NCBI GenBank assembly: GCA_026770025.1
Contig: JAMXDE010000009.1
Span: forward strand, 1,959,001-2,023,000
Direction: 5' to 3'
DNA: 64,000 bases
Source: Craspedostauros australis
Taxonomy: Eukaryota > Bacillariophyta > Bacillariophyceae > Mastogloiales > Achnanthaceae
Below the pieces are notes generated by a model. The model was not told the DNA's origin. It worked only from the letters and a program-made list of their open reading frames with translations, and did no database searches. Shown here piece after piece: positions 15,223 to 52,407 of this stretch (positions are counted from its first letter, which is position 1; every line of letters begins with the position of its first letter). Both the position numbers and the translations under genes were made by a program.

Positions 15223-15280
15223 GGTGCATACAAGATGTCCTGATGTCAAAAGGGGCACATCGGTGACCATAGCACAATCG

Positions 15281-17720: not shown

Positions 17721-17757
17721 AATGGGGTGGTGGGCCTGTGCTGGGATAAGTCTCTGC

Positions 17758-17794: not shown

Positions 17795-17956
17795 TCTTTT
17801 GAGCTGCCAGCACCTCACCACACAACCACGAATAGCATCCTGACTCGAATATCTCTGGCTGCTGAAGTTATAAGAATGGTAGAAACGGTGTTCTCTAATT
17901 TGATGTGTAGTCACAATGAATGGTAGCATAGTTCTCTGCGTGTATGCCCCCGGATC

Positions 17957-20900
17957 TTAGCTGCAGGCAGATTGAACTGGGCCAGGGCACTCAGTGGCTG
18001 GGTCGTCGATGGTGTATGTTTGTGTGCTCAGTTCGCACAATTTCCCCCCCTTGACGCAATCCTTACAGCTATCGCTACCATCACTGCAAGCTCCTTCGGC
18101 GATAACGAGAGTATTTTCTGCGTCCCCGTTGGAAATGTCGTAACACGCAATGTTAGGGCCCCCCTTGCATGCGCCCTTCTTGACGATAAAGCTTCCTGTG
18201 GCGTGGGTGGTTGTTCGGTATGCATAACCGCAAGTGTAGGCTCCTTGGCATGCGTTCTCCTCGAGAATGATATTGACGACGATCGGTGACGCATTCGTGC
18301 CTTGATTTTTACGACCCCCGAGACTTCGGCAAGCATCGGTGCCGGTGCAAGCTCCTTTGTGAACTCTCACATTGCCCATGACGTTTCGGCCGGCGAAAGT
18401 GCAGCTCGTTTCACCTGTGCAAGCTCCTGGCCCAATCACCCTGTGGCCAACGGCGACATCGGTGTTTGGGACGGTATCGAAGATGCCGTAGTTTGAGCAA
18501 GCATTCTTCGCGGTACAGCTTTCAAGGACGATGCTGTCTCCATGGATGCTGCTGCACGAGAAGAGGCTCATACAGGACCCTTCGCTCACTGTCAACACGT
18601 TATCACCCGATTGTCTGGTCGTGCACGCATTTGATCCTGTACAGCATCTGCCATTGCATGGTGCCGTCAGCTGATTACTGCCGGCAGTGAAGAGCTTCTT
18701 GGTTTCCACTGTTGTCAACAGCAGTTGCGTCACCTCCGCGTCGTTCTTGATCTTGTTGAAACGTTTCTGGGCCACTTCCAGCGACACAGTCGAACCTGCT
18801 ATCTTTCCGCAGCCAAAGATGCTCTTGATCATGTTGGCCTTGTCGTCGGTCAGTCCAGCAATTGCGGTGAGGAAGTTCGCGCATGGTCCGGTGCCTCCAT
18901 CACAGCTGACGTCGCCGACAATCCCATTGAAAGTCGATGATCCATCTCCAGGAGTATTAAGACATCCAACTCCCATGGAAGGTGGTGGAGTGGTCGGGGC
19001 CTCACTTGGAGCCTGAGACTCCGAAGGAGCGATACTTGGGGTGGTTGAAGGCACGTCGGATGGACCCATGGAATCCGAAGGGGCCCAGCTGGGGACCTCC
19101 GACGGCGTTGAGCTGGGGACCTCGGACGGGCTGTCGGACGCAGTCGCAGATGGCATCTGAGATGGAATCTCGGATGGTAGACCGGTCGGTTGGCGAGACG
19201 GCAGACTGGATGGCACACTGGACGGCTGGTACGATGGAATACCAGACGGAGTACCTGAGGGGTTCTCCGACGGAACATCGGAAGGTGCATCAGATGGTTG
19301 TTGGGACGGCAGACCCGAAGGCATTGCACTTGGGATACCAGACGGAAGGGAGCTCGGGACATCGGAGGGGGCCTCGGACGGAATATCGGAGGGGGCCTCG
19401 GACGGAACTGTGCTCGGCATGGCCGACCCAAAGACAGTTGGACTGTTGGTTGGTCTTCTTGTGATGGTCGGAAGAGGTGTTGGAAAGAAGGTCGGGGTCT
19501 CTGTGGGCAAGCTGTCTCTTCCAATGCAGTACTCCTCCACCCTCTCCCCAGTCGGATTGCCACCGGAGCTGCTGTCTCCCTTGGGGCAAGCTCCATCGGT
19601 GTTGCTGATGAGATACGCCCCACCGTTGTCGCAGTCTTTTGCGGTGATGCATCCCCTGCAGGTGCCGGCGACACTGCACTCACCAGGAGCAACGATGATA
19701 TCCATTCCTAACCTGTCGTTGAAGCCAATCTTTTCGCAGGAGCGGTCCTGATCGCAACCGCCGTCGCCGATCGTCAGACCCCCTTTGTACTTGCCGGCAG
19801 TGCCATAATTGACTGTGGAATGGGTATCCTTGCAGGCATCGATGCCAACGCATGCATTCGGTCCAATGTTGATGTGGCTTGGGAAACGGTTGGAGGTTTT
19901 CTGCTGACTGCGGCGTCCGGCCGCGTTGCATGCATCTGAGCCGACGCAAGAGGCATCCAGGACGACGACATTGCCGTAAGAGCGATGTCCAACTCCCTCG
20001 CATGATCCTGGATTGGTGCATGAGGCTTCACCCACGAAGGTGACTCCCACAACGGATGGATTGAGATCATTTTCATTCATGGATTCGCATGCACTCTCGC
20101 CAGTGCATGAGGAATCGAGGATGAGGGGATTGGGCCCGATATTCTTGCATGCGCTGTCGCCAGTGCAACCAGTGATGGCGACGGTCATGAATGGTGGAGA
20201 GCTGGAAGTGGAGGCGGCGGCAGAAGTGCACCCCGAAGATCCCTGGCAGCATGGGTCTGCGACCGCAGGCGATTGCATCATGGCGATGTCCGCGCATGCT
20301 GCGTTCATGGCATCCGGACGTTCGGTGACGAGGATCGCGTTGGTGGCAGCGATCATCGTGAGTTGCTCAGCGAGCACGGCGTCCGTTGCGTACTTGTTGA
20401 AGAGCTTGCGCGCGGCTCCTTCTCCGAGATCTCCAGCGCAACCGAAGAAGTTCTGCAGCTCTGCGGATTCCTTGACAGCGGTCACCGCCTCGCGGCACGA
20501 TGGGTTGGTGGCATCGCAGATGATGGTCTTGGAGCTGGATTCGGCAAAAGTGAGGGCGGTGTCACCGTCCGGCTTACAAGCGACTTCGATGATGGCATCG
20601 AAGGAGTCTGGGTCAGACGCTGGTTGAGTGGTAGGCGACATTGAGGGCATCTCAGCTGGAGGGCCCGTCGGCGGTCCTGTTGGTTCATGCGTCGGCGAGG
20701 CAGTCGGAGGACCCGTGGGTCCAGCAGTCGGCGATCCAGTCGGCAACACTGTTGGCGCAGAGGTCTCGGGAGTACCCGGGTTGTCTGTGGGAGGCTCTCG
20801 TTCGGCCTTGTTTTGTTTCGCCGCCTTCGCGTTGTCATCAGCGCCGACCTTGAGGGCACGGATCCTGTTCATCGCCGTGCGGAGTTCCTTGGTTGGATCC

Positions 20901-21001
20901 ACGGGGGTCCGGTTGCCACGGAGCACGGCGTGAGTCAACACCATGTTGGAGAGGAAGAGAACAGCCACGATGGCTGCCTTCATGTTGATCATGCGGATCA
21001 T
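17957..21001 (-). CDS. Large secreted two-module protein with PSD/PSS linker, left copy
   Basis: A 1014-aa protein, no intron. The signal peptide MKAAIVAVLFLSNMVLTHA follows the start MIRMIN. A Pro/Thr-rich stretch (GPTGPPTASPTHEPTGPP) leads to module 1 (about 130-495): a helical FGCAGDLGEGAARKLFNKY region, a CCQGSSGC segment, then Cys-rich repeats of the type CTGDSACKNIG that suggest a beta-solenoid with paired cysteines. A linker of PSD/PSS/PSE units fills about 497-676. Module 2 (about 677-1014) repeats the architecture of module 1 (IFGCGKIAG...VAQKRFNKI, CCTGSNAC, CTGETSC). The protein is probably extracellular or cell-wall associated; its ligand is unknown. The homologue at 49114 matches almost perfectly in module 1, while module 2 and the linker are strongly diverged. 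The upstream in-frame extension (to 21304) is leader DNA. Confidence 0.85.
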   Translation of the reverse strand: MIRMINMKAAIVAVLFLSNMVLTHAVLRGNRTPVDPTKELRTAMNRIRALKVGADDNAKAAKQNKAEREPPTDNPGTPETSAPTVLPTGSPTAGPTGPPTASPTHEPTGPPTGPPAEMPSMSPTTQPASDPDSFDAIIEVACKPDGDTALTFAESSSKTIICDATNPSCREAVTAVKESAELQNFFGCAGDLGEGAARKLFNKYATDAVLAEQLTMIAATNAILVTERPDAMNAACADIAMMQSPAVADPCCQGSSGCTSAAASTSSSPPFMTVAITGCTGDSACKNIGPNPLILDSSCTGESACESMNENDLNPSVVGVTFVGEASCTNPGSCEGVGHRSYGNVVVLDASCVGSDACNAAGRRSQQKTSNRFPSHINIGPNACVGIDACKDTHSTVNYGTAGKYKGGLTIGDGGCDQDRSCEKIGFNDRLGMDIIVAPGECSVAGTCRGCITAKDCDNGGAYLISNTDGACPKGDSSSGGNPTGERVEEYCIGRDSLPTETPTFFPTPLPTITRRPTNSPTVFGSAMPSTVPSEAPSDIPSEAPSDVPSSLPSGIPSAMPSGLPSQQPSDAPSDVPSENPSGTPSGIPSYQPSSVPSSLPSRQPTGLPSEIPSQMPSATASDSPSEVPSSTPSEVPSWAPSDSMGPSDVPSTTPSIAPSESQAPSEAPTTPPPSMGVGCLNTPGDGSSTFNGIVGDVSCDGGTGPCANFLTAIAGLTDDKANMIKSIFGCGKIAGSTVSLEVAQKRFNKIKNDAEVTQLLLTTVETKKLFTAGSNQLTAPCNGRCCTGSNACTTRQSGDNVLTVSEGSCMSLFSCSSIHGDSIVLESCTAKNACSNYGIFDTVPNTDVAVGHRVIGPGACTGETSCTFAGRNVMGNVRVHKGACTGTDACRSLGGRKNQGTNASPIVVNIILEENACQGAYTCGYAYRTTTHATGSFIVKKGACKGGPNIACYDISNGDAENTLVIAEGACSDGSDSCKDCVKGGKLCELSTQTYTIDDPATECPGPVQSACS

Positions 21002-23498
21002 GGTTGCTGTTTGCTGCTTGTCGGTTGCTTGGATTGTGTGCTGCGATTCATTTTCGTGTTGGACACGGATAGAGCAGCGCAGCGTAGAGCAGAGCAGTGT
21101 GAAGTACGGGAGCAAAAGTGCTCGTACCGGTGGGATACGAGAGGTGTGGGATTGAGTTGAGTTGGGCAGAGCAGCGGAACGTGGCAGCAGTGTATTGGGC
21201 AGACCAGAGTCGAGCGGAGTTGGAGGCGATGACACAATATGCCACCAACATACAAAGCAAGCATATGGTCGGAATGACAAGGGTGGGAGGGGGCATGACA
21301 TCAATACGCATCACCTCCCATGACGATGGCAGCTGATTCGGTAGGAGCGTCCTCCCTAGATGCTGCCGGTGATGCTGATTGTCCCAATGTGTGCATCTGC
21401 TTGAGGCAGCATGCTGTGTCGGATAGGGCGAGTGCTGCGAACGAATCCTCCTGACATTGCCTCTTCGCCATGCAGACATTCATTCATCCTGCAAACCTCC
21501 ATCTGCAATTGATCGATGCCCGGAACGTACCTTTGGTTTGTATCTGGCTTTGGCCGGAGAGAAGCTTGTGATCACCTGCCAATGCTTGTCGATTGCTGTG
21601 TGGTGATGCTGTGCTTTGGAGTACAATCTGTTCGTCGATTGTTTTTTATGAGAGATGCTGTGTGGATGTTGTCGAAGGCAAGGAAGTGATCTTCGCAGAC
21701 GCAAATCCACATGCACGTGTAGCGAGAGACACTGAGACACAGCGTGCGATGGACACTGTGGTATTGTTGTTGCATCAACGACAGATGAACACTCCTCCCT
21801 CCGCTACTCTGCTCGTGCGTGCGCACACCCACTTGTGGAATCGAGTATTTGGAGGAGAATTGCTCGTTCATTTGTTTGCTCGTTCTTTCATCCAATCCTT
21901 CATCTCTTCAGCGCAGTCCACCAGCGCGATCCAAACCAATGACGACAGGTTCCAGCGCCGTCAGTGCGTGCGTTTGGTGTTCGTGTGAATTGGAGGGGCT
22001 CTCCTCTGTTTCGTTCGCACTCGCGTTGATGACCTCGTTGGTACAAGTTGCGCTTTGGTGCACCACCGGCGGAGCAAGCCCAGTGCTTTCACGATCGCCA
22101 CTAGGTTTCTATTTCTCTGTGGCTCTGTGGTCGCAGACAGAACTGGACGCCACTTTTCGCAAATAGCATTTCTTGGTCCGCTCTATTTGTTGGTTTGTGT
22201 CACGAAGAAAATCTGGGAACGAGACAGAAGTTTGTACAGCCTCCGACAGTATAATAGTATGGTACAGGCTGTGCTCTCGGCCAATGCCGTTTCAGTGAGT
22301 GGACGATGTTGGGAGGGTATTTCTCCTCCAATACACAGACCTACCACGGTACTCGTCGGTCCTTCCAGTTGACGACTCTACTACATGGTCGCTATCAGCA
22401 CAGCGGCAAGACTTCTCTTGGTGCCTACTGGAGGGGCACTGGCCATACCCCTTAACCGCATCTCGTGAGAAAGGCAAACAACATCACGCAGGGGACTGAG
22501 CAGTGGACGGCGAGAAGTCGTTTCATGCAACCACGGAAGCGCTGAATGGCTTCGCAGCGCCACAGTGTTGATCAAGAGTGGCAAATGATTGAACAATTTC
22601 AAGGAAGAACATTGCGAAAGCGAACGCGTGATGAAGGGAGAAGTGCCAAATGGAGAACATGGTCACAGAGAACGCGATGGAGGAGAACATGGTCATGGAA
22701 ATGAAGCCAGGATGGTGTGGCGTGGTGTGGCGCAGCGAGTTGCGGTATTGTACAACCTGTGGTCCATACTATGAGAGTAGTACGAGCCAGACACAGGGAA
22801 CGAGTGCTATACGACTACTCGTGTAATACGTATGCATGTCGTCACCATTCAACTCGACTCGACTCCACATCGCTTCACTCCACTCCATTCTACTCTCCGA
22901 CGCTCTCCTTAAGTTCATTATCACAGCAATCTCTCTCTCTCTTGAAGCAGCACTCGAGATTATCATCGCACGACCATAGCGGAGGCGACGATGATCACGA
23001 TAGCAGTGACGAACATGGCCACGCATACGCGTGTACTTCCGGAAGTCTCTTGTTTGGAAACAACACAACAGATCGGAGTGATGCGCAGAGATGCGAGTGC
23101 TGATACTCTGAAGATTTTCACTTCGATACACTCGTGCATGTGAACACGCACAGTTGGCAACGCCGCCGCGGCCAGAGAGACATACTCATCCGTGTATTCT
23201 TTGTGAAAAGCTCCCAGCGCTTCGTTTGCAGCAGAGTTTTTTACTTCTTTTTCTGCCGTGATAGTTCTGCGCCTCCACCATACCAGCCACATGTGAGGAA
23301 TGAACAACGAACCAAGAAATCGCATTCGTGGATTTGGTTGCGCTTGCGCATGTCACTATGCCCGTATGTTGTTTTTCTCCGAGTCGGTCTTGTGCCCAAC
23401 ATCACGCGCGACACGAGGCGAATTCGGAGAAGGCGAGACCAAAACCAAATCTGTCGCCACTTTATCTCATCTCGTCTCACCTCATGTCTCTGTCTATG
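21002..23498. other. Upstream region of the secreted protein, then unassigned DNA
   Basis: Up to about 21785 the DNA is duplicated upstream of the right-arm secreted protein (48327-49113), so it is presumably the shared promoter and leader. Beyond that point up to the transposon, no gene or repeat was recognised. Confidence 0.5.
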
Positions 23499-23651
23499 AG
23501 CCAACTTAGTGAGTCGACCTGCACTTTGTTACGGGACTCAAGAACATTTATTCAGTAGATCCAAACCAAGCATATAATCGTATTCTCCCACCTCTTCTTA
23601 TAAATAATTAACCATTACATTTTTGAGATAGATCCTATTTTAAGTTTTATG
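23499..23651. repeat. Left terminal inverted repeat
   Basis: Pairs with 29424-29577 on the opposite strand. The best-conserved parts are the outer 34 bp (CTTAGTGAGTCGACCTGC onward) and an AT-rich inner part (TAAATAATTAACCATTAC). Confidence 0.88.
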
Positions 23652-24176
23652 CATATTCAAAGGCTTTCTGAAGTCGTATGGGTCGATCCCTGTGAAATTC
23701 CTAGTTGTTTTGCAGAAAGTTCGATCATGTTCTCATGCATTTATCGTATGGTATCCAATCACGGAATAGACGCCGGGATTGTCGTTCGTTTGGTACGCGT
23801 TAAATACACGTTAGCATCTGCGACATGATCTCACATTTTGCTCGTCACAAAACACATCACACAAAACACATCACACAAAACACAAAACACATCACACATC
23901 ACACATCACACATCATCGGCATCTGTTCACAAATTCAGGCATCATCGCCACACTTTCGCTCCATTTCGCAACTTTCTTCGCCAATGTCATGTGTACTCTC
24001 TGTTGTGTTCCATGCTTGTGCTCGCCCTAGTAGTGTAGTAGTAGTAATAGTTGCTGTGGCTGTCAATGAATGGTGGCCTTTCATCCCATGCTCTCCTCTC
24101 CTCACTTCGTCTCAAACCTGTGCAGATCATCACATCCGACCAAATAACAACTACACTCTCCACCAACAATTCCACC

Positions 24177-27100
24177 ATGTTTCCCTCTGCTGCTGCCAAG
24201 GCCCTCTCCAAGGATGGCAACCCCTCCCCCAGTAAGAAACCGCGTTCTCCTTACCCTGTATCTCCTCCCTTCGATTCGAAGGGGTTCCTGCTGCCAACTG
24301 CGGAGCAACTGTTGCCTGACAAGCCGTCCGCTGCGTTGAGGAAGCCGAGCACCATCACGCGAGTGATCGATGTGAAGCCGATGCATGCAGCGGATGGCAA
24401 CCTCGTCCCGAACAGTACGCATGCGCACGCTCGCGAGCTGCATGTGTACGTTCACATCCTCGACAATAACGGAAGCGTCTTCGACGACTCCAATGTCAGG
24501 GTGCGTTCGGAGGGACGAGGTGTTGGCGATGGTACGTTGGTGAGCGTTATCGTGAACGCGCCACCCCCGCCTGCTGCAGCTGATGTTGCACCACCTGCCG
24601 AGCCTGCCCCACCGGCGAGGCTCCCTCGTCGCTGCAATGCTGTTGTTGCTGGTGTCTACGCAGACACCTCCAATGACAGCGACACCACCTACGACGACAA
24701 CGACAGGGGTGAACGAACGCGTGCCAGCAGGAACAGGAGAGGAGGTCAGTTCGGGTTTGATCCGGAAGAGGCGGGAAACTGGAGGCGCGATGCCATTGTT
24801 CGTGTCATGGCAGTGCTTGGATCTAACCTAGATCCTGAACTGTTGTACCACATGCCCAAAACAGGATTCGTTCTTGACAGCAACGGTGATAGGACAACAT
24901 GGTGGAACTTGACACGCGTGTGGGTCACTGTGGCTACTGCGCTCTGGGGTGTCTTGCTCCCTCAGGAGGAGTTGCCAACTCGTCAGATTAAACAGGTGGT
25001 GGAGTTTGTCCGCGCTCGCGTGGACCTGCCGCCGCCTGCACTCGGTTCAAATCTGTACACCCTGTGTGTGAGGGGGGAAAAGACAATTGCTAACGTGGCG
25101 AAAGCCGTTCTCGCTGCATCTACTTCATGCAACAACGTCACTGCAATCCTGTCTCGTCATGTGGAAATCATGCCGGAGGAACAACGTATTCGTGTCGCAC
25201 CAGCACGCGCCACTAACACTAGGAGTCAACTAACAACGTTGCGACGCGCCTTCGACATATTCAGCTGTGGCGGAATCATTCCGCCCAAGGTTCTACAGTA
25301 TCGTGTGCGTGCTTGCAACCTGTCTGGTGTGACGTCGTTTCTCATGACCACCACTACGTACAAGGCAGGGTTGAGTCACACGGTACAGTTTGGAGGTGTC
25401 AAATTTGAAAATGTCCCCGTGTTCGATCGCGGAAGCACGACCATCGAACAACTATTCGGCATGTACTCATCCACGACCAACAACCCAGTGGGAATGCCCG
25501 CTTTCACCCTCATCACCAACCTACTCACACGCAAAAGCAAGATCAAGACGGGCCTCTCTTCCTTCGAAAGCTACTTCTGGATGGCGACGGAGAAACTCAA
25601 ACAGGCGATTTCGCGCCTAGTAGACCTACTGAAGGCTAAGTATGAAACAGACGGGGAGGAACAAAACGATGCCAATGACAAGAGCGACAACCACAACGAC
25701 GAGCCAGATGACGTCATCGCGCCACATGTGCGCACAGCCGATTCCCTCTTGCATGCACTTGAACTGCTTGTTGTGTTCCTCAAATGGGAATTCACCGCCT
25801 CCCACATGCAGCTTCAGTGTGACGATCCCATGCATTCGGCTGCGTTCGCACTCACCACCAACAAGGAGAAGAAGAAGGCAACAACCACATCAACCAATCA
25901 ACGCCAACCACGCACCAACAAGCACAAGCGCAAGAAGACCACCTCTGTCACCAACGACACTCCAAACGTCACAAATGACAATTCTCCCACCACTACAAAT
26001 GACCAACCCTGTAAAGTATGCAACCGTTGTGGATCAGCAATGCGATTTGTGAATGATCGTTTTGTTCCTTTTGTCACAATGCTTAAGGACAACGAACTCG
26101 CAGAACACAAGGACGAATTACAATCCATGCTTGCGGCGGCGCCGGGATTCGCCAACGAAATTGTTAACTACATGGCTCACAAAGTGCGTGCAAAAGTTCA
26201 ATTCCGACAAATCGCCTTTTATCAATCCGAACTCAATGATAAGCCTGAAAGAGCCTATGTGGTACTTGACCATAAGCAAAAAATTCTACCGACAGGCCAA
26301 GGCGAAGCCCAACAAGAATATTGGGGGAAGAAGGGAATGTCACTGCTTGGGGCGATGGTCATCACGTGTCGCAATGACATTTTTACTTATCGGTTCATCG
26401 ACATTGTGGTCGATGGAAGACCGACACAAGACACTCTTCAAGTTGGTGGACTGCTGGAGATCGTGCAAAAAAAGGTCAAAGACATTCACCCATCCGTGAC
26501 TGAAATCATCTTACAGAGCGATAATGCGTGTTGTTTTGCCAGTCACGAGCACATCGCGCTCATCACGTCCAAACTCAACAAGAACCTTGTGACACGAAAC
26601 GCGGCCAAAATCATCATGTGGATCTACACGGAGGCCCAAACCGGTAAGAGCATGCTGGACACCCACTTCGCGTACATCACACGTGTACTGCGAAAATACG
26701 TGCAAAGTGGCAAGGACATCAAGACCCCGTTCCAACTCTTCCTCGCGCTCCAAGCCGGCAGCATCGCGGGGACAACCACGGTACTTGCCAACGCGTCGTC
26801 CCTCCAAGGCAACATCACGACGCTTCCTGGCGCACCAAAAAGACGATTCCGCGCGAATGGGCAACAGGTACGTCAAACTCACGAGGTGAAGTATGATGAT
26901 GACCAGGCGCGGTTGGTGGCTGCATCTGGTATCACGGAAGACGTCGTGGTCAAGAGCGCTGAATGGGAAGGGTGGACCATCAACGAGTTGGGTGTCGTCC
27001 CTGCCGATTCGCACACGTCCGACAAGCTGCCGATCACGTCCGAATCGTCCAGGAAAACGGACAAGACGCGCAAAATGGGGCGCACAGCAACAGAGAGCAA

Positions 27101-29423: not shown

Positions 29424-29577
29424 CATAAAACTTAAAATAGGATCTATCTCAAAAATGTAATGGTTAATTATTTATAAGGAGAGGTAGGAGAATACGAATA
29501 TGTACGTTGTTTGGATATCTGAGACAAAAGTTCTGGAGTCCCGTAACAAAGTGCAGGTCGACTCACTAAGTGGGGTC
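29424..29577. repeat. Right terminal inverted repeat
   Basis: The reverse complement matches 23499-23651. It is followed directly by an exact 43-bp repeat of its outer end at 29578-29620. Confidence 0.88.
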
Positions 29578-29620
29578 GGAGTCCCGTAACAAAGTGCAGG
29601 TCGACTCACTAAGTGGGGTC

Positions 29621-31357: not shown

Positions 31358-32740
31358 ATGGTCGAAGGTCATTCTGTCCATCGTGTCGCACATCGGTTCT
31401 GACAGGGTCTTGTGGGAAGGTCATGTAAGGCATGGTCTCCCAATGGACGATTCACCAATGGCACATCAGCCATACACAAGCAGCCATTTTTGCGCATCGA
31501 AGCCGTCGGCAAGAACCTCTTTGCATTCTTTGGGAACGATGCTGACAATCCTGTCGTGGTGCATGTACATTGTGGAATGGCAGGCAGCTGTGCAGTGTAC
31601 CTGTACAACTACAGCAAGGAAGATCCATCACCAGAACCAACCACAACGAACTGCCTTCGTTTGGAGTCTGGTGATATTGTGGCCGATCTGGCAGCCAGCC
31701 ATGACTGTGCAGCACAGTGACATGTCGTTGTGCAACAACAAACGATCCAAGTTGGGTGAAGATCCCTTGTGTGCCGATGTCGATCCAGAAGCGTTGTGGC
31801 AGCGAATCCAGAGACCCAAGAAGTCCATCAGTGCATTGCTGATGGATCAGAGGTAGTTTGCTGGTCCTGGGAACATCTACCATGCGGAGATCTTGTTCAA
31901 GGCGGGCGTGCATCCTGGCGTGCTGGGCAGGGCACTGGAGCGCTCCCAATGCAACCGGGTGTGGGCACACACCGTCGCATTGCTACGACGTGGATTCGAG
32001 ACAGGGTTCCATCCTGACGGTGGATCCTTCTGAAGCCAAGGCATTGGGCAGGCCGAGACTGCGACGGTACATCTGCAACACCTCCAGATGTCCCCGCTGT
32101 TCCACATCCAGACCTGGCAGATCGCGAATCGCAGGTGCTACGCTTGTCCCAGATGTCAACCGGTGCATGACAGCGACCGGAAGAGCACAGTGATCACCAA
32201 TGCAGCGAAGTCAACGAAGATAACGAAGACAACACAGACAGCGAGAGTAGCGAAGGTAGCGAAGACAGTCGCAATATCTCGCACCAAATCCCGTACCGCA
32301 TCCCGCACCACGTCGCACGCCAACACAGAGAAAGAGAATTGCGTTCCATTCAATTCGCACTGTGCACCTGAATCAGTGGCGGAACGATTGCAGGCCGACG
32401 GGCCTGGAAGGCTCACCATTCGCGAAATCAAGAGCGAGTTACATCGTCGAGGCCAGACGATTCTCACAAACTCGAAGAAGGCAGTGCTGGCGAAGCAGCT
32501 GGAGCACGTCCTATCGCAGGACGCCGTGATGATATCGGCGGAAGATGATGCGATGGAGAAGGCCATGGCAGGGGAGAGTTTGGCGGTGGAACAACTTGCG
32601 GAACTGTGACCATCGCAGGCCCGCAAGGTCAGGCAACGGGCGGCAGCGACAGTGATAGCAATACCGATAGGACCAAGAGAGCCAACTACATTCGAGTCGT
32701 CCACAGATTCGGAAGACGATTGATGACGCTGCGGATACTC
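31358..32740 (+). pseudogene. Nei/Fpg-type DNA glycosylase with SAP domain, left relic
   Basis: The N terminus MVEGHSVHRVAHRF matches the Nei start (M-x-EG, where the Pro2/Glu3 region is catalytic), but residue 2 is Val instead of the catalytic Pro. Further family blocks follow: VHVHCGMAGS, FAGPGNIYHAEILFKAG, VDPSEAKALGR and the zinc finger CPRC...CYACPRC. A later block GPGRLTIREIKSELHRR resembles a SAP DNA-binding domain. These enzymes excise oxidised pyrimidines. The frame is broken by a stop soon after the start (about codon 15), a 4-bp insertion near 31693, a stop after LLMDQ, an extra base near 32001 and a 4-bp deletion within the zinc finger. The stop after LLMDQ and the extra base are shared with the right copy, so the gene was already broken before duplication. 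Confidence 0.82.
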
Positions 32741-33172
32741 GTACATATGATGCATGCTCAACTGTGGAGCATGAAGGTGGTATTGCATAACTGAAGGAGG
32801 ATTTGGCACAGAGAGAGATTCCATTCACTTCGAAGACGCGGAAAGCTGCATCGATCGAGTTCTTGACGACAGCAAGGGATGAGAGCTGTTCTGGAGTAGA
32901 TAGAGCTGCACCTGTACCGGCGGCGGAAGGATGTAATCGACTGGAGCAGAAGAGGGTGGAGCACAGCAAGCACCAGGAAAGTGTATGGTTGCAAACAACA
33001 TGTGGGCGTGCCTCTATATCTGTGCTTCATCGCCGATAGCTGTCCATTGCCTCGCTGTTGCTATTCCTGCAGATTCTTCTCCTCCATCCTTTCCCTGTAT
33101 TTCTTCGTCACACAATACCAAAGAATTTGGATGGCTGTAGGAAATCGTTCTAAAAACGACCAACGCGGACCA
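32741..33172. other. Intergenic, end of left arm
   Basis: Up to about 32940 this is the duplicated 3' flank of the Nei relic. The remainder is unique, with no gene seen. Confidence 0.5.
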
Positions 33173-34669
33173 CTATTGCGAGGTTTGTCCACCTCCACCT
33201 CCACTCTCATTGCCTTCGCCGCCGCCACCACCGCCAACTCCAACGGGTATTGGCATTCCCGATCCTCCGGATGGAACGCGGCGGGCAATCTCGCTGATCA
33301 TCCGTTGTGGCGGCTGCCCTTGCAACCAAACCACACCTGGACCTGTCAACGTTGTCATGAAAAGGCCCTCACCACCAGCAATGACGTTTTGAAAGCCTTT
33401 GACCATTTGCACATCTGCAAAATGAAGCAAGCAATGAGCAGGAGATGGTTGGCAGTGGAGGACGGTGGTTGATGAGCGAAGAAGAGAAAATGGATGAGAG
33501 GAGAAGGTGGAATGAAACATCGTTCTGTAGGGTCTGCACATCATTGCCTGACTTGATGTTCGTTGTTTTGTATCTCCGCTCGATGACTTACCGTAGTCGA
33601 CACCGTTGGAGAAACCGACCAGACAACCCGACGATATGCGCAGCTCCTCTCCATCTGCCAATTCTCGCCGAATGAGCGTCCCGCCTGCTTTCAGGAACAC
33701 GTCTCCGTTGCCTGTCAACCCTTGCAAGATAAATCCTTCTCCACCAAAGAAGCCGGTTGAGAAGTTCTTGCTGTATTCCATTTGAATGTCGACAGTGTGA
33801 GAAGCGCATAGCAAGGCACCCTTCTGGCATACCAGCTTGCCGTCGTATTCCTCCACGTTCAAACGGATGATTTTGCTTGGAAAATCTGTTCCCAACGCAA
33901 TGGTGCCCTTGGTATCGCCTTGGTAGGTGTAGTCCGAAATGAAAAAGTTCTGCCCCGTCAACATGCGCTGAAACCCTGTCGAGAGACCCCCTCTGTTTAT
34001 GATTGTGGCGTGTGTGTAAGCAAGCACGAACGTTTCATGTTGAATGATGCCCAAGAATGTAATGAATAAGACAAGGAAACAAGAATGTCAGATACTCATG
34101 TATAATACGAGAACAGAATCAAATAGAAGAGTAGGGTAGAGTAGTCTATGGCATGCTGAAGCGCGGATATGCACAGGCACTGATGGTCACCGCGTGACCG
34201 CATTCCACCCAAAGCAAGAATCACGAACGTACCCAGTGGTGGTCTGCATCTCCACACCATCGGTCATGTACATCATGGCACCGGATTCTGCACGCAGAAC
34301 TTGTCCTGGCTCGAGTTCGATGATGGCGATCTGAGACTCATTGCCCTCAATCTTCGATTGCACATCGAAATTGATTGGGAACCCGACGACTCCATCGGAG
34401 CTCGTTGCTGCGTTTGCAATTGAAGTATCTCGCGAAGTCGGAACTGGAGCTGACGACGACGACGACGACGATAGATATCGTGATGAAAGGCTTGCGGGGG
34501 TACAGACGCCAGCACCAGCCACCTGTTTGTGGATTGGCGCGACGGATTCAAGTCTTCCAACCAGAGCTGTGTTGACACAGGTTGTAGACCGAAACAATGT
34601 CTTCGCCCTTGACGGGATGGCTGTCAAAGCCTGTTTTCGCAGCATCATCGTCGTCTTTTCTATCATCAC
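33173..34669 (-). CDS. AIM24-family protein, probably mitochondrial
   Basis: Three exons (34669-34233, 33992-33592, 33414-33173) with GT-AG introns of 240 and 177 bp give 359 aa. Donors are GTACGT and GTAAGT. Joining restores QTTTGGGLSTGFQR and VDYDVQMVKGF, both continuous within the family. The N terminus is Ser/Thr/Arg-rich without acidic residues up to about residue 75, fitting a mitochondrial presequence; a second start lies seven codons in. The AIM24/TIGR00266 beta-sandwich follows from about residue 100: MMYMTDGVEMQT, GQNFFISDY, EGFILQGLTGNGDVFLKAGG and GEGLFMTTLTGPGVVWLQ. Yeast Aim24 helps keep the MICOS inner-membrane complex intact. The tail is Gly-rich. It is single copy between the two arms. 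Confidence 0.88.
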
Positions 34670-44999: not shown

Positions 45000-45541
45000 G
45001 AGTGTAACTACACCATACTCCACTCGTACGAATCAACCAATCTATTATATTTGCGCAAGCTCTATAGATGGCGGCAAAGGTGACGGGGAAGGTGGCCACA
45101 CGTCGTACGAGTAGTAGTGATCCGCGTTGGTCGTTTTTGGAAGGATCCGACTACTATACTCGTACTCTGCGTTGCGTGATGACCACTCACAAGGATAGCA
45201 TGGTAAAGCCACATCTAGAGGAATAGCAAGAGTGAGCGAAGGCAAAAACATCGACGATGAAGCATGAACACAGAGGCATGTTCATATCATGTTGAATCTG
45301 CTACACCCTCATCGACACGATCACGTCCATCCGTCCACCACCGGCGCTGGTGCAGCTCTATCTACTCCAGAACAGCTCTCATCGCTTGTCGTTATCGAGC
45401 ACTCGATCGATGCAGCTTTCGCGTCTTCGAAGTGAATGGAGTCTCTCTCTCTCTCTCTGTGCCAATTCCTCCTCTAATTTTGTAATACCACCCTCATTCT
45501 CCACAGTTGAGCATGAATCATACGTACGAGTATCCGCAGCG
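45000..45541. other. Spacer between J-protein copy and Nei relic
   Basis: The unique part (45006-45340) contains several TACTCGTAC-like words. From 45340 on it matches the 3' flank of the left Nei relic. A CT-dinucleotide run lies at about 45443-45460. Confidence 0.5.
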
Positions 45542-46765
45542 TCATCAATCGTCTTCCGAATCTGTGGACGACTCGACAGTGATTGGTTCTCTCTTGATCG
45601 CTATCGCTATCGCTGACTCTGCCGCCCGTTGCCTGACCTTGCGGGCCTGCGATGGTCCCAGTTCCGCAAGTTGTTCCACCGCCAAACTCTCCCCTACCAT
45701 GGCCTTCTCCATCGCATCATCTTCCGCCGATATCATCACGGCGTCCTGCGATAGGACGTGCTCCAGCTGCTTCACCAGCACTGCCTTCTTCGAGTTTGTG
45801 AGAATCGTCTGGCTTCGACGATGTAACTCGCTCCTGATTTCACGAATGGTGAGCCTTCCAGGCCCGTCGGCCTGCAATCGTTCCGCCACTGATTCAGGTG
45901 CACAGTGCGAATTGAATGGAACGCAATTCTCTTTCTCTGTGTTGGCGTGAGACGTGGTGCGGGATGCGGTACGGGATTTGGTGCGAGATATTGTGATTGT
46001 CTTCGCTACCTTCGCTACTCTCGCTGTCTGTATTGTCTTCGTTATCTTCGTTGACTTCGCTGCATTGGTGATCACTGTGCTCTTCCGGTCGCTGTCATGC
46101 ACCGGTTGACATCTGGGACAAGCGTAACACCTGCGATTCGCGATCTGCCAGGTCTGGATATGAGTGGAACAGCGGGGACATCTGGAGATCTTGTAGATGT
46201 ACCGTCGCAGTCTCGGCCTGCCCAATGCCTTGGCTTCAGAAGGATCCACCGTCAGGATGGAACCCTGTCTCGACTCCACGTCGTAGCAATGCGACGGTGT
46301 GTGCCCACACCCGGTTGCATTGGGAGCGCTCCAGTGCCCTGCCCAGCACGTCAGGATGCACGCCCGCCTTGAACAAGATCTCCGCATGGTAGATGTTCCC
46401 AGAACCAGCAAACTAGCTCTGATCCATCAGCAATCCACCGATGGACTTCTTGGATCTCGGGATTCGCTGCCACAGCGCTTCTGGATCGGCATCAGCACGC
46501 AAGGGATCGTCACCCAACTTGGATCGTTTGTCGTTGTACAACGACATGTCACTGTGCTGCACGGTCATGGCTGCCAGATCGGCCACAATATCACCAGACT
46601 CCAAACGAAGGCAGTTCGTTGTGGTTGGTTCTGGTGGTGGATCTTCCTTGCTGTAGTTGTACAGGTACACTGCACAGCTGCCTGCCATTCCACAATGTAC
46701 ATGCACCACGACAGGATTGTCAGCATCGTCAGCATCGTGTCGGAGAATGCGGAGAGGATCCTGGG
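45542..46765 (-). pseudogene. Nei/Fpg-type DNA glycosylase with SAP domain, right relic (5' truncated)
   Basis: Matches the left relic from the VVVHVHCGMAGS region to the end but lacks the first about 50 residues, including the catalytic N terminus; homology stops at about 46765. From 46411 to 45545 a 288-codon frame is open and contains LTVDPSEAKALGRPRLRRY, the zinc finger SRCPRCSTHIQTWQI...CYACPRCQ, a Ser/Thr/Lys linker, a SAP-like segment (LTIREIRSELHRR) and an acidic end. The stop after LLMDQ and the frame change before the DPSEAK block are shared with the left copy. Zinc finger and SAP parts are better preserved here than on the left. Without the N terminus no glycosylase activity is expected. 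Confidence 0.82.
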
Positions 46766-48326
46766 ATCATGTGATGTGTGCCCATGCGAATCAACTCAAT
46801 TTGATATTCAATTGCAGCACTCCCGGAACCCCACGACGTCAAGGCCAGACATGGTTGATCTCATTCCGCTTGGTAACATAGGGCATAGCGATATTTTGTC
46901 TTGAACGAATACGTTAATTGTGTCCAACCGGTACTCATTGAAGTGGAATCTGCGTGTGTGGTTGCCATCGTGTCCACCCATTTGGTTGTCGAATGAGGTG
47001 GTTCCTCGTGATGCATCCAAAAGTCATCTCAAAGTCCAGAACTTTGGGGAGAGAGAGGGAGAGAGACAGCACTCAACGCCTGAGCGAAGCACCATACCTC
47101 ACACGAAACATGTGCAAATCGACCAGCGCTTCCGCTGCGCCGTGTTTTGTCAACCAACGTGAGCTGGTCTGGCATCGCTCTCGCTGTCTGTCTTCTATTT
47201 CTCTGTTTGGAGTGTTGATGGAGGGGTTTGACCGGTTATTTCGGAATTGCCGCGCGCCTCGAAGGGGCTGGGATGTTGCCGCATCCATTTCCTCGCTTCC
47301 GTTGTTTCGGCACCTCACTTGTACTCTTCGAGCCCGGTATCTTGGAACTGAAAGCATGGGATTCCATTCGCCGAGACCTTCGTCCTCGGGCATGGGAAGA
47401 TGCCGATGTGTCAAATGCCAACTGCTGTGTGAAGGAACAAAGTCATCATCAACAGTTGGCTAGCCGGTGAGAGTCGAACCCACGACACCGACAATGGATC
47501 CACACGGTTGCCGAACAACGGAGAGAGCGTGCCATGTCACCACAATGGTGTTAACCATTCCCACGTTTGCATTTCTCCGAGCCAGGCTCATTGAATCTTT
47601 GTCGAAACAACGCATTGCACAAAAACACCCATCTACGCACATGGCGATGAGTCTTGAGGTTGGTCTTGGTCTTGCTCTCGGTTGTGCTCCTCATCACGTC
47701 CACGCTCACGCAAGCTCTCTATTCGGGGGTTTCGCATTCCGCTCAGCCAGCCCCAAGCAGTCCCACGAGTGATTCATAACCTGATAGAGACACTTTTTGA
47801 GGGGTGGGATGCGGACTTCCCCCTCAGCGTGCTGAATCGAGCGGAGGAGATTCCAGTCCGCGTGCTCCGAACTGAAGTGTTCTCAGCTCGTGCAGTCCCG
47901 GCAATAGTATCACTTCCACGCGTAAGCAAAAAGCAGCCAATCATGATGCTTTATTTCGACAGTTTTGGTCGTTCTTGTCGTTCTCAATGATCTATGTTTG
48001 TGACAATGCTACTCCATATGGACCCAATTCCGGACAACAACATCCAAGAGAACAACAATGGCACACCCATTTCGTCAGACTTTCATCTCTTCCTATTTGC
48101 TGGCTATCATATATTCAATCTCAGAACAGCCATGGCCAACACAGCATGTCGTCAAACCGGAACTGAATTGAACTTGTCTAAAATAGATATCTTTGTCATG
48201 GAATGAGTTAATACAGGTCACATTAATCAAAGAGGGATTGTGTCACGAAACAGTCCTGTGCAGTTTCACAACTCGAGACTCAATGCGAACTGTGACATGA
48301 CACAGGGGCAGAGCGAGCTGGACGCT
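46766..48326. other. Right-arm spacer
   Basis: Sits between the Nei relic and the promoter of the secreted protein. It shows no similarity by eye to the left spacer and no protein gene. It contains the tRNA-like sequence at 47455-47557. Confidence 0.5.
47455..47557 (-). ncRNA. tRNA-like sequence with long variable or intron part
   Basis: On the - strand GTGGGTTCGACTCTCAC forms a good T-arm with a consensus B-box, followed by CGGCTAGCCA. A possible acceptor half GGTTAAC and D-stem CCAT/ATGG with GG in the loop lie upstream. The anticodon arm can be drawn in more than one way, and a 17-nt variable region plus a long loop would be needed. No amino acid identity is claimed. It could be a diverged tRNA, a pseudogene or a SINE head. 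Confidence 0.38.
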
Positions 48327-49113
48327 GTCGTTGATGCAACAACGAAACCACAACGGCCATCGCATTTTTCTTCTCTTTGTCTCTCACTGCGTGCGCGTGT
48401 GGATTTGCGTCTGCGTCTGCGAAAATCACTTTCTTGCCTTCGACAGCATCCACACAGCATCTCTCATAAAAAACAATCGACGAACAGATCGTACTCCGAA
48501 GCACAGTATCACCACACAGCAATCGACAAGCATTGCCAGGTGATCGCAACCCTCTCTCCGGCCAAAGCCAGATACAAACCAAAGGTACGTTCCGGGCATC
48601 GATCAATTGTAGATGGAGGTTTGCAGGATGAATGAATGTCTGCATGGCGAGGAGGCAATGTCAGGAGGATTCGTTCGCAGCACTCGTCCTACCCGACACA
48701 GCGTGCTGCCCCAAAGAGATGCACACATCGGGAGCATCAGCATCACCGACAGCATCTAGGGAGGACGCTCCTACCGAATCAGCTGCCATCGTCATGGGAG
48801 GCGTGCTGTGTAACGGCTCCACGCGTCCCCACGCTTGTCATTCCGACCATATGCTTGCTTTGTGTGTTGGTGGCATATTGTGTCATCGCCTCCAACTCCG
48901 CTCGACTCGGGTCTGCCCAATACACTGCTGCCACGTTCCGCTGCTCTGCCCAACTCAACTCAATCCCACACCTCTTGTATCCCACCGGTACGAGTACGTA
49001 TGCTTCCGCACTCCACGTTTCTCTACTCCTCGCTGCGCTGCTCTATCCGTGTCCAACACGAAAATGAATCGCAGCACACAATCCAAGCAACCGACAAGCA
49101 GCAAATAGCAACT
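48327..49113. promoter_or_regulatory. Duplicated upstream region of the secreted protein
   Basis: This DNA is nearly identical (inverted) to 21002-21785 in the left arm. Retention of the whole 0.8 kb with the gene in both arms suggests it holds the promoter and 5' leader. No specific element was identified. Confidence 0.5.
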
Positions 49114-52100
49114 ATGATCCGCATGATCAACATGAAGGCAGCCATCGTGGCTGTTCTCTTCCTCTCCAACATGGCGTTGACTCACGCCGTGCTCCGTGGC
49201 AACCGGACCCCCGTGGATCCAACCAAGGAACTCCGCACGGCTATGAACAGGATCCGCGCCCTCAAAATTGGTGTCGACGGAGACACGAAGGGGACGAAAC
49301 AAAACAAGGCCGAACGAGAGCCTCCCACAGACAACCCGGATACTCCCGAGACCTCTGCGCCAACCGCGTTGCCAACTGTCTCGCCGACTGCCTCGCCGAC
49401 GCATGAACCAACAGGACCGCCGACGGGCCCTCCAGCTGAGATGCCCTCAATGTCGCCTACCACTCAACCAGCGTCTGACCCAGACTCCTTCGATGCCATC
49501 ATCGAAGTCGCTTGTAAGCCGGACGGTGACACCGCCCTCACTTTTGCCGAATCCAGCTCCAAGACCATCATCTGCGATGCCACCAACCCATCGTGCCGCG
49601 AGGCGGTGACCGCTGTCAAGGAATCCGCAGAGCTGCAGAACTTCTTCGGTTGCGCTGGAGATCTCGGAGAAGGAGCCGCGCGCAAGCTCTTCAACAAGTA
49701 CGCAACGGACGCCGTGCTCGCTGAGCAACTCACGATGATCGCTGCCACCAACGCGATCCTCGTCACCGAACGTCCGGATGCCATGAACGCAGCATGCGCG
49801 GCCATCGCTGCCATGCATTCGACTGCCGTCGCAGACCCATGCTGCCAGGGATCCTCGGGGTGTACTTCTGCCGCCGCCTCCGCTTCCAGCTCTCCACCAT
49901 TCATGACCGTCGCCATCACTGGTTGCACTGGCGACAGCGCATGCAAGAATATCGGGCCCAATCCCCTCATCCTCGATTTCTCATGCACTGGCGAGAGTGC
50001 ATGCGAATCCATGAATGAAAATGATCTCAATCCATCCGTTGTGGGAGTCACCTTCGTGGGTGAAGCCTCATGCACCAATCCAGGATCATGCGAGGGAGTG
50101 GGGCATCGCTCTTACGGCAATGTCGTCGTCCTGGATGCCTCTTGCGTCGGCTCAGATGCATGCAACGCGGCCGGACGCCGCAGTCAGCAGAAAACCTCCA
50201 ACCGTTTCCCAAGCCACATCAGCATTGGACCGAATGCATGCATTGGCATCGATGCCTGCAAGGATACCCATTCCACAGTCAATTATGGCACTGCCGGCAA
50301 GTACAAAGGGAGTCTGACGATCGGCGACGGCGGTTGCGATCAGGACCGCTCCTGCGAAAAGATTGGTTTCAACGACAGGTTAGGAATGGACATCATCGTT
50401 GCTCCTGGTGAGTGCAGTGTCGCCGGCACCTGCAGGGGATGCATCACCGCAAAAGACTGCGACAACGGTGGGGCGTATCTCATCAGCAACACCGATGGAG
50501 CTTGCCCCAAGGGAGACAGCAGCTCCGGTGGCAATCCGACTGGGGAGAGGGTGGAGGAGTACTGCATTGGAAGAGACAGCTTGCCCACAGAGACCCCGAC
50601 CTTCTTTCCAACACCTCTTCCGACCATCACAAGAAGACCAACCAACAGTCCAACTGTCTTTGGGTCGGCCATGCCGAGCACAGTTCCGTCCGAGGCCCCC
50701 TCCAATATTCCTTCCGAAAATCCATCCGATGTCCCAAGCTCACTGCCCTCGGACAACCCAAGTTCACTTCCATCAGGTGCTCCTTCCAACCAACCTTCCA
50801 ATGTCCCGTCTGACCAACCATCTGATCTTCCGTCCGACCAACCATCCGACCAACCTTCCAATATCCCATCTGACGAACCATCCAATGTCCCAAGCTCACT
50901 GCCCTCGGACAACCCAAGTTCACTCCCATCAGACACTCCATCCGACCAACCTTCCAATGGCCCATCTGACCAACCATCTGATCTTCCGTCCGACCAACCG
51001 TCCGACACTCCGTCCGACCAACCTTCCAATGTCCCATCTGACCAACCATCCGATGTTCCAAGCTCACTGCCTTCGGACAGCCCAAGTTCACTCCCGTCAG
51101 GTGCTCCTTCCAACCAACCTTCCAATGGCCCATCTGACCAACCATCTGATCTTCCGTCCGACCAACCGTCCGACACTCCATCCGACCAACCTTCCAGTGC
51201 CCCATCTGACCAACCGTCTGATCTTCCGTCCGACCAACCGTCCTCAATGCCGACTGAAACCCCATCTAACAGCCCATCGACTGTGCCTTCAGACACCCCC
51301 AGCCTAGCTCCTTCGGAATCCATTGCTCCAACTGAAGTACCAACGATCACGATGGCGCCAACCCGTTCCCCAGCCACCATTCAAGTTGGCTGTCTCGAAA
51401 CTCCTGGAAATGGATCATCGAATTTCAACCCCGTTGCCGATGTAGTCAGCTGCGATGGCGCGACCGGAACATGTGCCCACTTCATCGATTATATCAACGC
51501 ACTTGACGATGGCAAAGCCAAAATGATCAAAAGTATCTTTGGCTGCGAACCATCAGGGGTGGCTGTGTCGCAGGAGGTGGCCCAGAAACGCTTCAACAGC
51601 ATGAAGAATGACGCGGAGGTGACCCAACTGTTGTTGACAACAGTGGCGACCAAGAACCTCCTCACTGGTGGTGGACCCCAGTTGACGGCAGCTTGCAATG
51701 GCAACTGCTGCACAGGAGACGAAGCGTGTGTGGTTAGTCCCTCCACTGGTGTGATGACGATTACCGAAAGTTCATGCATGGTCGGAGACAGTAACTGCAA
51801 CCTTGTGGTCGAAAACGCTATTATCATCGACAGCTGCACCTCCAACAGTCAAAGCACTGATGATACCTGCGCCAATTTTGGTACGTTCACCACGGCCCCA
51901 AACTCGGCTGCCCAGCTTGGCTACAAAGTGATTGGGCCAAATGCTTGCAAAGATCTGGAGGGTTGCAAGGCCATGGGCAAAGACGTCTATGGTAACGTGA
52001 GAGTCGCAGAAGGGGCTTGCTCTGACGGGGTGTTCGCTTGCCGAAACCTGGGACAACGTAAGAGTCAAGGCAATATCGCATCACCAATCCGAGTCGATAT

Positions 52101-52407
52101 TAGTATCGAAACCAACGCGTGCCGAGATGATATCGCTTGCACATCGATGTATAAAAATACTGCCATCGCAACGGGAAGTGTTACCGTGAAGAAGAATGCA
52201 TGCAACGGAGAGTCTGTGTGCGGCGATCTTCATCAGGACGGGATTGGAGGCAATGACCTTGTCATCGAAGAAGGAGCCTGCATTGGAACTGTTACGTGCC
52301 GAGATTGCTTGAAGGGCGTCCAGTCATGTGATTTGTCCTCAGAAACATACACCATCAGCGCCCCAAAGGTTGGTTGTCCTGGTCCAGAACAATCTTCCTG
52401 CAGCTAA
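49114..52407 (+). CDS. Large secreted two-module protein with PSD/PSS linker, right copy
   Basis: A 1097-aa protein, no intron, with the same start, signal peptide and module 1 as the left copy at 17957-21001; only scattered substitutions and a short deletion in the Pro/Thr stretch distinguish them up to about residue 530. The linker (about 490-758) is 90 residues longer, made of regular PSDQPSDLPSDQPSDTPSDQ units. Module 2 (about 759-1097) has the same architecture (IFGCEPSGVAVSQEVAQKR, CCTGDEAC, paired-Cys repeats such as CKDLEGC, ACRNLGQRKSQG) but only about half its residues match the left copy. It probably sits at the cell wall or is secreted. It remains fully open, as is the left copy, so both seem to be under selection. 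Confidence 0.86.
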   Translation: MIRMINMKAAIVAVLFLSNMALTHAVLRGNRTPVDPTKELRTAMNRIRALKIGVDGDTKGTKQNKAEREPPTDNPDTPETSAPTALPTVSPTASPTHEPTGPPTGPPAEMPSMSPTTQPASDPDSFDAIIEVACKPDGDTALTFAESSSKTIICDATNPSCREAVTAVKESAELQNFFGCAGDLGEGAARKLFNKYATDAVLAEQLTMIAATNAILVTERPDAMNAACAAIAAMHSTAVADPCCQGSSGCTSAAASASSSPPFMTVAITGCTGDSACKNIGPNPLILDFSCTGESACESMNENDLNPSVVGVTFVGEASCTNPGSCEGVGHRSYGNVVVLDASCVGSDACNAAGRRSQQKTSNRFPSHISIGPNACIGIDACKDTHSTVNYGTAGKYKGSLTIGDGGCDQDRSCEKIGFNDRLGMDIIVAPGECSVAGTCRGCITAKDCDNGGAYLISNTDGACPKGDSSSGGNPTGERVEEYCIGRDSLPTETPTFFPTPLPTITRRPTNSPTVFGSAMPSTVPSEAPSNIPSENPSDVPSSLPSDNPSSLPSGAPSNQPSNVPSDQPSDLPSDQPSDQPSNIPSDEPSNVPSSLPSDNPSSLPSDTPSDQPSNGPSDQPSDLPSDQPSDTPSDQPSNVPSDQPSDVPSSLPSDSPSSLPSGAPSNQPSNGPSDQPSDLPSDQPSDTPSDQPSSAPSDQPSDLPSDQPSSMPTETPSNSPSTVPSDTPSLAPSESIAPTEVPTITMAPTRSPATIQVGCLETPGNGSSNFNPVADVVSCDGATGTCAHFIDYINALDDGKAKMIKSIFGCEPSGVAVSQEVAQKRFNSMKNDAEVTQLLLTTVATKNLLTGGGPQLTAACNGNCCTGDEACVVSPSTGVMTITESSCMVGDSNCNLVVENAIIIDSCTSNSQSTDDTCANFGTFTTAPNSAAQLGYKVIGPNACKDLEGCKAMGKDVYGNVRVAEGACSDGVFACRNLGQRKSQGNIASPIRVDISIETNACRDDIACTSMYKNTAIATGSVTVKKNACNGESVCGDLHQDGIGGNDLVIEEGACIGTVTCRDCLKGVQSCDLSSETYTISAPKVGCPGPEQSSCS
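50700..51260. repeat. Coding minisatellite of the PSD linker
   Basis: Tandem 12-bp-based units (CCATCTGACCAA-like) form longer repeated blocks: a block near 50726-50846 recurs at about 50887-50983 and 51048-51160. The array is more regular than the left-arm counterpart (about 19000-19420), indicating recent expansion. Confidence 0.85.

What the first reader, a model, noticed from the sequence alone, without database searches (positions are those of the whole stretch)
17957..52407. Mosaic pair of secreted proteins: identical first module, strongly diverged second module
The proteins at 17957-21001 (-) and 49114-52407 (+) are almost identical for their first ~500 residues and for ~0.8 kb upstream, yet from the start of the PSD linker (about 19390 left, 50710 right) onward module 2 drops to roughly half identity by eye. 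The 3' flank also differs, and similarity then returns to near-identity in the lipase relic (17593 left, 52985 right). Modules 1 and 2 within each protein share an architecture. A single duplication followed by drift cannot give this profile. Exchange or gene conversion of a module cassette, with the PSD repeats as the crossover zone, can. That would be a diversification mechanism for surface proteins, comparable in logic to cassette switching.
Basis: partly seen in the sequence, partly recalled or inferred. Interest (0 to 1): 0.78.

Follow-up and report, generated by a model that had tools for sequence, protein, structure and literature searches.

The report
Mosaic two-module secreted protein family
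Two neighbouring algal genes for secreted proteins share a nearly identical front half but have very different back halves, most likely because members of their large gene family have repeatedly been overwritten, piece by piece, with copies of one another.

Summary
Observation confirmed. The left (17957-21001 -) and right (49114-52407 +) genes have dS 0.034 in module 1 and 0.95 in module 2. Identity breaks at 19388/50704, the start of the PSD linker, and returns at about 17740/52967. The genome (74.8 Mb, probably a diatom) holds at least 119 places with this module. Among 45 genes read, the right module 2 has close kin (84, 78, 74% aa); the left module 2 has none above 55%, though its module 1 is 98% like the right one. 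A second tract, in the AIM24/Nei block, shows the same topology. So the left gene most likely kept its own old module 2 while right-type DNA overwrote its promoter, module 1 and neighbours by ectopic gene conversion: the reverse of 'module 2 swapped in'. Other members are mosaic too (L012, L019, L005/L030, L010/L045, L017), with breaks mostly in the linker. The two arms are circular permutations of each other. Module 2 evolves faster (omega 0.70 against 0.25). Exchange is well supported, its direction is inferred, programmed switching is not shown. New member of a known kind: segmental conversion in a secreted multigene family.

The parts
17957..21001 (-). LEFT gene, 1014 aa, secreted-type, two modules; the mosaic one
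49114..52407 (+). RIGHT gene, 1097 aa; its module 1 and module 2 pair as in L009, L016 and L002
19496..20608 (-). LEFT module 1 (Cys-rich, probable beta-solenoid); 97.6% aa to RIGHT
49483..50595 (+). RIGHT module 1
18971..19495 (-). LEFT PSD linker, 175 aa; break to RIGHT at about 19388
50596..51384 (+). RIGHT PSD linker, 263 aa; tandem array of 168-bp units from 50701, break to LEFT at about 50704
17960..18970 (-). LEFT module 2; no match above 55% among 119 places in the genome
51385..52404 (+). RIGHT module 2; 84/78/74% aa to L009/L016/L002
21002..21784 (-). LEFT 5' flank paired with RIGHT (79-95%); several stretches closer to other paralogues
48325..49113 (+). RIGHT 5' flank paired with LEFT
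17741..17956 (-). LEFT 3' flank, no counterpart in RIGHT and no close copy found in the genome
52408..52966 (+). RIGHT 3' flank, no counterpart in LEFT
14234..17740 (-). relic block R, left copy (with two LTR-like insertions), 98% to the right copy
52967..54676 (+). relic block R, right copy; lacks about 126 bases near its start
12256..14214 (-). block D: DnaJ/DnaJ-X gene, left copy, open frame of 614 aa
43095..45022 (+). block D, right copy, frame split by a 1-base difference
31536..33204 (+). block X, left: Nei/Fpg relic and tail of the AIM24 gene; inner part 97% to RIGHT, outer part 64%
45080..46729 (-). block X, right: truncated Nei relic with an AIM24 tail remnant, joined to block D

Best explanation
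The two genes belong to a large family of secreted two-module proteins (PT stretch, Cys-rich probable beta-solenoid module 1, PSD linker, module 2). The left locus is the old resident, beside the AIM24 and DnaJ frames. A derivative unit with circularly permuted order (DnaJ, truncated Nei, gene, relic) arose from it long ago (dS about 1); related units now sit at the right locus and on contigs C38 and C2. Much later (dS about 0.03) ectopic gene conversion from right-type copies, mainly the right locus about 30 kb away in inverted orientation, overwrote the left locus in several tracts: promoter plus module 1, inner Nei relic, relic R and DnaJ. Module 2 with its 3' flank, and the AIM24-side tail, escaped. 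The tract end lies at the start of the PSD linker, where the two linkers differ in repeat content. Similar patching occurs elsewhere in the family, so one module 1 type, often with its promoter, is found with different module 2 types, each module keeping its position. Shown: mosaic structure, breaks, third loci, conflicting trees. Inferred: direction of transfer, conversion as the molecular process, the linker as the physical tract boundary, the circular intermediate.
For: dS contrast 0.034 / 0.95. Right module 2 has close kin, left has none. Module 1 groups left with right, module 2 does not; DNA AU tests reject four of four concordant alternatives on 14 genes. The outer part of block X is 91-94% among right, C38 and C2 but 63-65% from left to each, the inner part 97% left-right: same topology and depth as module 2 in non-coding DNA 12 kb away. 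X-P spacers share nothing above shuffles, as expected of an old duplication. Stretches of the left 5' region are closer to other paralogues (9 of 42 windows). Right, C38 and C2 share the order D-X-P and the D|X junction, left alone of the four X copies has the Nei N-terminus. Other family genes show like breaks.
Against: Protein AU tests on 41 rows reject only one of five alternatives (p 0.001; others 0.10, 0.23, 0.24, 0.32). A strict nearest-neighbour criterion flags only 3 of 40 genes. Module 2 evolves faster throughout, so part of the identity step is constraint, though not the synonymous contrast. Blocks D and R show few residual old edges on the left; the direction rests on module 2 and the outer X tract. 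Only 45 of at least 119 places were read, from one assembly; donor tracts were not traced base by base.
Confidence: 0.72

Rival explanations
1. Left is a recent copy of a right-type locus into which module 2 with its 3' flank was imported from a third paralogue.
For: Module 2 plus 3' flank is one tract bounded on both sides by right-type DNA; module exchange does occur in the family.
Against: No donor above 55% among 119 places and none by DNA. A second imported tract in block X would be needed, also without donor: only four X copies were found and left is the odd one. The X-P spacer and the 5' edge do not look recently copied from right.
Confidence: 0.15
2. Collapsed or mis-joined assembly, or two diverged alleles, produced an apparent mosaic.
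For: Long identical runs (422 bases) are places where assemblers can switch; ploidy and read support are unknown.
Against: Independent mosaics with different breaks occur on other contigs, the two arms differ by 2-3% even where alike, and the frames are open across the breaks.
Confidence: 0.07
3. A programmed switching or shuffling system uses the linker as a designated recombination site.
For: Three of the six clearest mosaics break within the first ~110 bases of the linker; the repertoire is large and mostly without stops.
Against: Breaks also lie inside modules (-660, about -600, +581), ages differ (dS 0.03 to 0.3), and no expression site or recombination signal was identified (I did not search for one systematically).
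Confidence: 0.03
4. One ordinary duplication, with module 2 simply evolving faster.
For: Module 2 has a higher omega in the family (0.70 against 0.25).
Against: Synonymous divergence differs 28-fold and the non-coding 3' flank is unalignable beside 98% identical DNA.
Confidence: 0.01

Closest known systems
Segmental gene conversion of Trypanosoma brucei VSG genes (PMC3708902; abstract and passages seen)
   Same: Large family of secreted/surface proteins with two regions; mosaics made by copying segments between paralogues, including '3' donation', in which a C-terminal part is exchanged.
   Different: Most copies here have no stops (106 of 119 places), whereas many VSG donors are pseudogenes; single-gene expression and switching are untested; events here are spread over evolutionary time; free-living alga, not a parasite.
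Circular-DNA-mediated segmental duplications, A-B/C-D to B-A/D-C (PMC7450558; abstract and Results read)
   Same: Block order X-P-R-D against D-X-P-R; the ends of one copy adjoin in the other, both ways.
   Different: About 12-21 kb instead of 22-3918 kb, much older, and later overwritten; breakpoint microhomology could not be judged.
Paralogue identity in diatom silicon transporter genes ascribed to gene conversion (PMC6114903; passages seen)
   Same: Gene conversion proposed between paralogues in a diatom.
   Different: That case is two identical genes; the paper says non-crossover gene conversion had not, to its authors' knowledge, been found in diatoms (2018). Here breaks, donors and conflicting trees are seen.
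Pfam DUF7640 proteins
   Same: Three of six family proteins scanned reach the DUF7640 cut-off.
   Different: Left, right and L010 score below the cut-off; the domain covers only part of a module.
Ser/Pro-rich rods of mastigoneme proteins (OCM3, PDB 9ufe; PMC11015965 seen only as a listing)
   Same: The linker matches OCM3 by sequence at E 3.8e-16.
   Different: A low-complexity match only; no sign that these are mastigoneme parts.

Membership tests
interlocus (ectopic) gene conversion | sharp identity steps at matching positions of paralogues | tested here: met
interlocus (ectopic) gene conversion | synonymous divergence differs between tracts of one gene pair | tested here: met
   0.034 against 0.95
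interlocus (ectopic) gene conversion | conflicting trees for the tracts | tested here: met
   DNA AU tests reject four of four; protein AU tests reject one of five
interlocus (ectopic) gene conversion | donor and recipient identified, transfer non-reciprocal | tested here: inconclusive
   left as recipient inferred; no pre-conversion state seen
circular-DNA-mediated segmental duplication | block order flip with ends of each copy adjoining in the other | tested here: met
   14214|14234 and 45022|45080; the derivative order also at C38 and C2
circular-DNA-mediated segmental duplication | only microhomology and short indels at junctions | tested here: inconclusive
   junctions too diverged to judge
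VSG-like antigenic variation system | mosaic genes from family donors | tested here: met
VSG-like antigenic variation system | archive rich in pseudogenes | tested here: not met
   13 of 119 scored places hold stops; 441 candidates, 119 scored
VSG-like antigenic variation system | one member expressed at a time, with switching | not testable with these tools
   no expression data
programmed cassette switching | dedicated expression site or recombination signal | not tested
   no systematic signal search was made
Pfam DUF7640 | score at or above the curated cut-off (28.1) | tested here: inconclusive
   L005 28.4, L020 33.8, P0003 33.5 pass; left 19.6, right 17.1, L010 18.8 fail
right-handed beta-helix / solenoid fold | confident structural match | tested here: inconclusive

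The most novel reading that the evidence does not exclude
A free-living photosynthetic alga keeps some 85 or more two-module secreted proteins as a recombining pool: conserved module 1 types, often with their promoters, are shuffled position for position onto fast-evolving module 2 types, with the disordered PSD linker (and a second boundary inside the modules) as the tolerated crossover zone. This would be a VSG/var-like diversification logic for recognition, mating, adhesion or defence outside parasites.
Probability: 0.3. Interest if true: 0.85.

Novelty: new member of a known kind. Interest (0 to 1): 0.63.

Why it matters
Mosaic evolution by segmental conversion is best known from parasite antigens under immune pressure (established knowledge; VSG example in PMC3708902, passages). 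Here a probable diatom shows the same footprint in a family with at least 119 places in one genome, with mapped breaks, conflicting trees and a second module under much weaker constraint. A 2018 paper stated that non-crossover gene conversion had not, to its authors' knowledge, been found in diatom genomes (PMC6114903, passage); later work, such as interhomologue mitotic recombination in diatoms, I only recall. The family gives testable material: what each module binds, whether linkers set tract ends, and how fast exchange runs in clonal cultures.

Tried and rejected
Rejected: one duplication plus drift; module 2 import from a third locus as first choice (no donor found).

Led nowhere: Rfam at gathering scores and ARAGORN on the window, nothing found. 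Viral contigs and genome-contig scans, no relatives (each warns that records of this genome may be left out). Protein search with the right module 2, none. The module 1 search gave one relative (P0003); the profile search gave 54 hits, of which module-only HMMs kept just P0003, the rest being linker matches. Residual homology of flanks and spacers was not above letter shuffles; a 25-base edge at 31511-31535 gave 17 of 25 matches and was not pursued. Structure models were poor (pLDDT 44 and 50), so fold matches are leads only.

Paper searches, ten in all: DUF7640, none; diatom + PSD repeat, none; diatom + gene conversion + paralog; mastigoneme/Ochromonas; circular intermediates; conversion and escape terms; diatom + mitotic recombination + gene conversion; VSG; diatom secreted families; diatom + conversion + surface protein + domain shuffling. 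Judged by the titles and abstract starts listed, none describes this family or such mosaics in a diatom; most hits beyond the listed rows were not seen.

Caveats on counts: pairs are not independent, and the step partly reflects the change of constraint at the module 1/linker border. In one search, 9 of 42 windows had another paralogue at least 8 points above right, gaps counted as mismatches, three of the nine lying at the edge of right's homology; my notebook entry misstates this as 8 of 41.

Full report
What is there. The two proteins are intronless frames of 1014 and 1097 aa: signal-peptide-like start (my reading, no predictor run), PT stretch, module 1 (about 370 aa), PSD linker (175 and 263 aa), module 2 (about 340 aa). 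Modules 1 and 2 are homologous: a module 2 profile finds module 1 at E about 1e-33. The window is eukaryotic and photosynthetic (PsbO, AAA, DnaJ-X, UbiA). That it is a diatom is my inference from PsbO (the organisms of the PDB entries are recalled) and from linker hits in named diatoms. The window lies in a 74.8 Mb assembly of 90 contigs, at C7:1959001-2023000.

The observation. Identity is mostly 97-100% through module 1, falls at about 19388/50704 within the first ~110 bases of the linker, is about 60% in module 2 and at background in the 3' flank, and returns to about 98% at 17740/52967. dS is 0.12, 0.034 and 0.95 for N-terminus, module 1 and module 2; dN/dS is about 0.36 for module 1 and 0.38 for module 2. 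The longest run without a mismatch, 422 bases, was reached in none of 10,000 random placements of the same mismatches. In the right linker an array of 168-bp units starts at 50701, at the break.

Besides gene (P) and relic (R), a DnaJ block (D) and a Nei-glycosylase/AIM24-tail block (X) are paired. Read along the genes, the left order is X-P-R-D and the right order D-X-P-R, all in one relative orientation. The two ends of the right copy map to one place on the left (14214|14234), and the two ends of the left copy meet on the right (45022|45080). This is the signature described for circular-DNA-mediated duplications (PMC7450558, Results read). Contigs C38 and C2 carry D-X-P like right, beside L009 and L019 (D on C2 is partial), and share its D|X junction. 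Of the four X copies found only the left one extends into the Nei N-terminus, and AIM24 beside it is a long frame with the domain, while right keeps only its tail. I infer that left is the source arrangement and D-X-P-R the derivative.

Third loci. A search with left module 2 scored 119 of 441 candidates, all matching: 85 in frames of at least 780 aa, 6 of 500-779, 28 shorter. I read 45 genes, 40 with full module 2. Right is an ordinary member: its module 2 is 84, 78 and 74% to L009, L016 and L002, whose module 1 is 91-92% like its own. Left has the same module 1 (97.6% to right), but its module 2 is 50-54% to all of them and nowhere above 55%. In trees (quick method, SH-aLRT), module 1 groups left with right (98) inside a seven-gene clade (100); module 2 puts left outside {right, L009, L016, L002} (100), and L012 and L019 in another, 19-row clade (99). 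DNA AU tests on 14 genes reject the four concordant alternatives tried (p 4.5e-58, 0.0096, 0.0002 and 3e-50). Protein AU tests on 41 rows reject only one of five (p 0.001; the others p 0.10, 0.23, 0.24 and 0.32).

Direction. The outer part of block X (32951-33204) is 91-94% among right, C38 and C2 but 63-65% from left to each; the inner part (31536-32650) is 97% left-right and 90-92% otherwise. This is the same topology and about the same depth as module 2, in a stretch 12 kb away that is largely non-coding. Two tracts in which left keeps an old sequence, with right-type blocks around them, are most simply explained by overwriting of left; import of two old tracts from absent donors is possible but costlier. 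The spacers between X and P (9.75 and 1.6 kb) share nothing above shuffles, as expected if the duplication is old. In the left 5' region and module 1, 9 of 42 windows are closer to other paralogues (L016/L002, L004, L019/L008, L024/L017) than to right, which suggests more than one donor, or changes on the right.

The family. Of 31 pairs with module 1 dS under 0.3, 17 have module 2 dS above 0.8. Of 19 pairs with module 2 dS under 0.3, 12 have higher dS in module 1, L010/L045 being extreme (0.336 against 0.045). L013/L015 (0.031/0.063) and L020/L021 (0.038/0.043) are low in both. A single-break scan of 780 pairs finds 309 with a clear step: 246 in the linker, 49 in module 1, 14 in module 2; among 27 with one side above 88% the numbers are 18, 6 and 3. 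Clear cases, in bases from the module 1 end: left/right +108, L019/L012 +66, L005/L030 +17, L019 against L016 and L009 +581 and +585, L010/L045 -660, L017 against clade I about -600. So three of these six lie in the first ~110 bases of the linker, three inside modules. L012 is the cleanest: 5' region 93-100% to L023/L024, module 1 91-99% to L019/L016, module 2 and 3' flank nearest to another clade; its 5' break cannot be placed between about -1350 and -750 because all these genes are alike there. In several mosaics the 5' flank travels with module 1 and the 3' flank differs with module 2; L012, whose 5' flank is not of the module 1 type, is an exception. A strict nearest-neighbour criterion flags only 3 of 40 genes, so independent events are few in this sample but more than one.

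Comparison. The logic resembles VSG segmental gene conversion, including its '3' donation' pattern (PMC3708902, passages), but the pseudogene-rich archive is not met (13 of 119 places with stops), and expression control and switching are untested. It works like segmental conversion in a multigene surface family; it is not shown to be a switching system.

Noticed in passing
14401-15222 and 16040-16871: Two copies (94%) of an element of about 0.8 kb with TG...CA ends and 6-bp target duplications (my reading), inserted in the left relic only: solo-LTR-like, younger than the copying of the relic.
   Followed up: partly
23498-29577: 154-bp inverted repeats (90%) flank about 6 kb holding a 1224-aa frame without Pfam match: possible DNA transposon in the left spacer.
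   Followed up: no
56353-56850 and 56977-57477: Direct repeat of about 500 bp at 94.6% identity.
   Followed up: no
43095-45022: The right DnaJ copy is split into two frames by a 1-base difference from the left copy, whose frame of 614 aa is open.
   Followed up: partly
31380-32600: A Nei/Fpg-type DNA glycosylase relic with in-frame stops, at least two of them shared by both arms.
   Followed up: partly
G000:C73:7268-27298 (L026, L027, L028): Three family genes with identical scores and lengths in tandem, 8,715 bases apart.
   Followed up: no
G000: C1:398787, C7:1045206, C14:688622, C28:109949, C40:127720, C18:339753, C22:355002, C49:257690, C5:2176635, C51:21811: Ten single-module family frames of 389-417 aa each hold one TGA; whether it is at the same position, and whether these are dispersed pseudogenes or read through, was not examined.
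   Followed up: no
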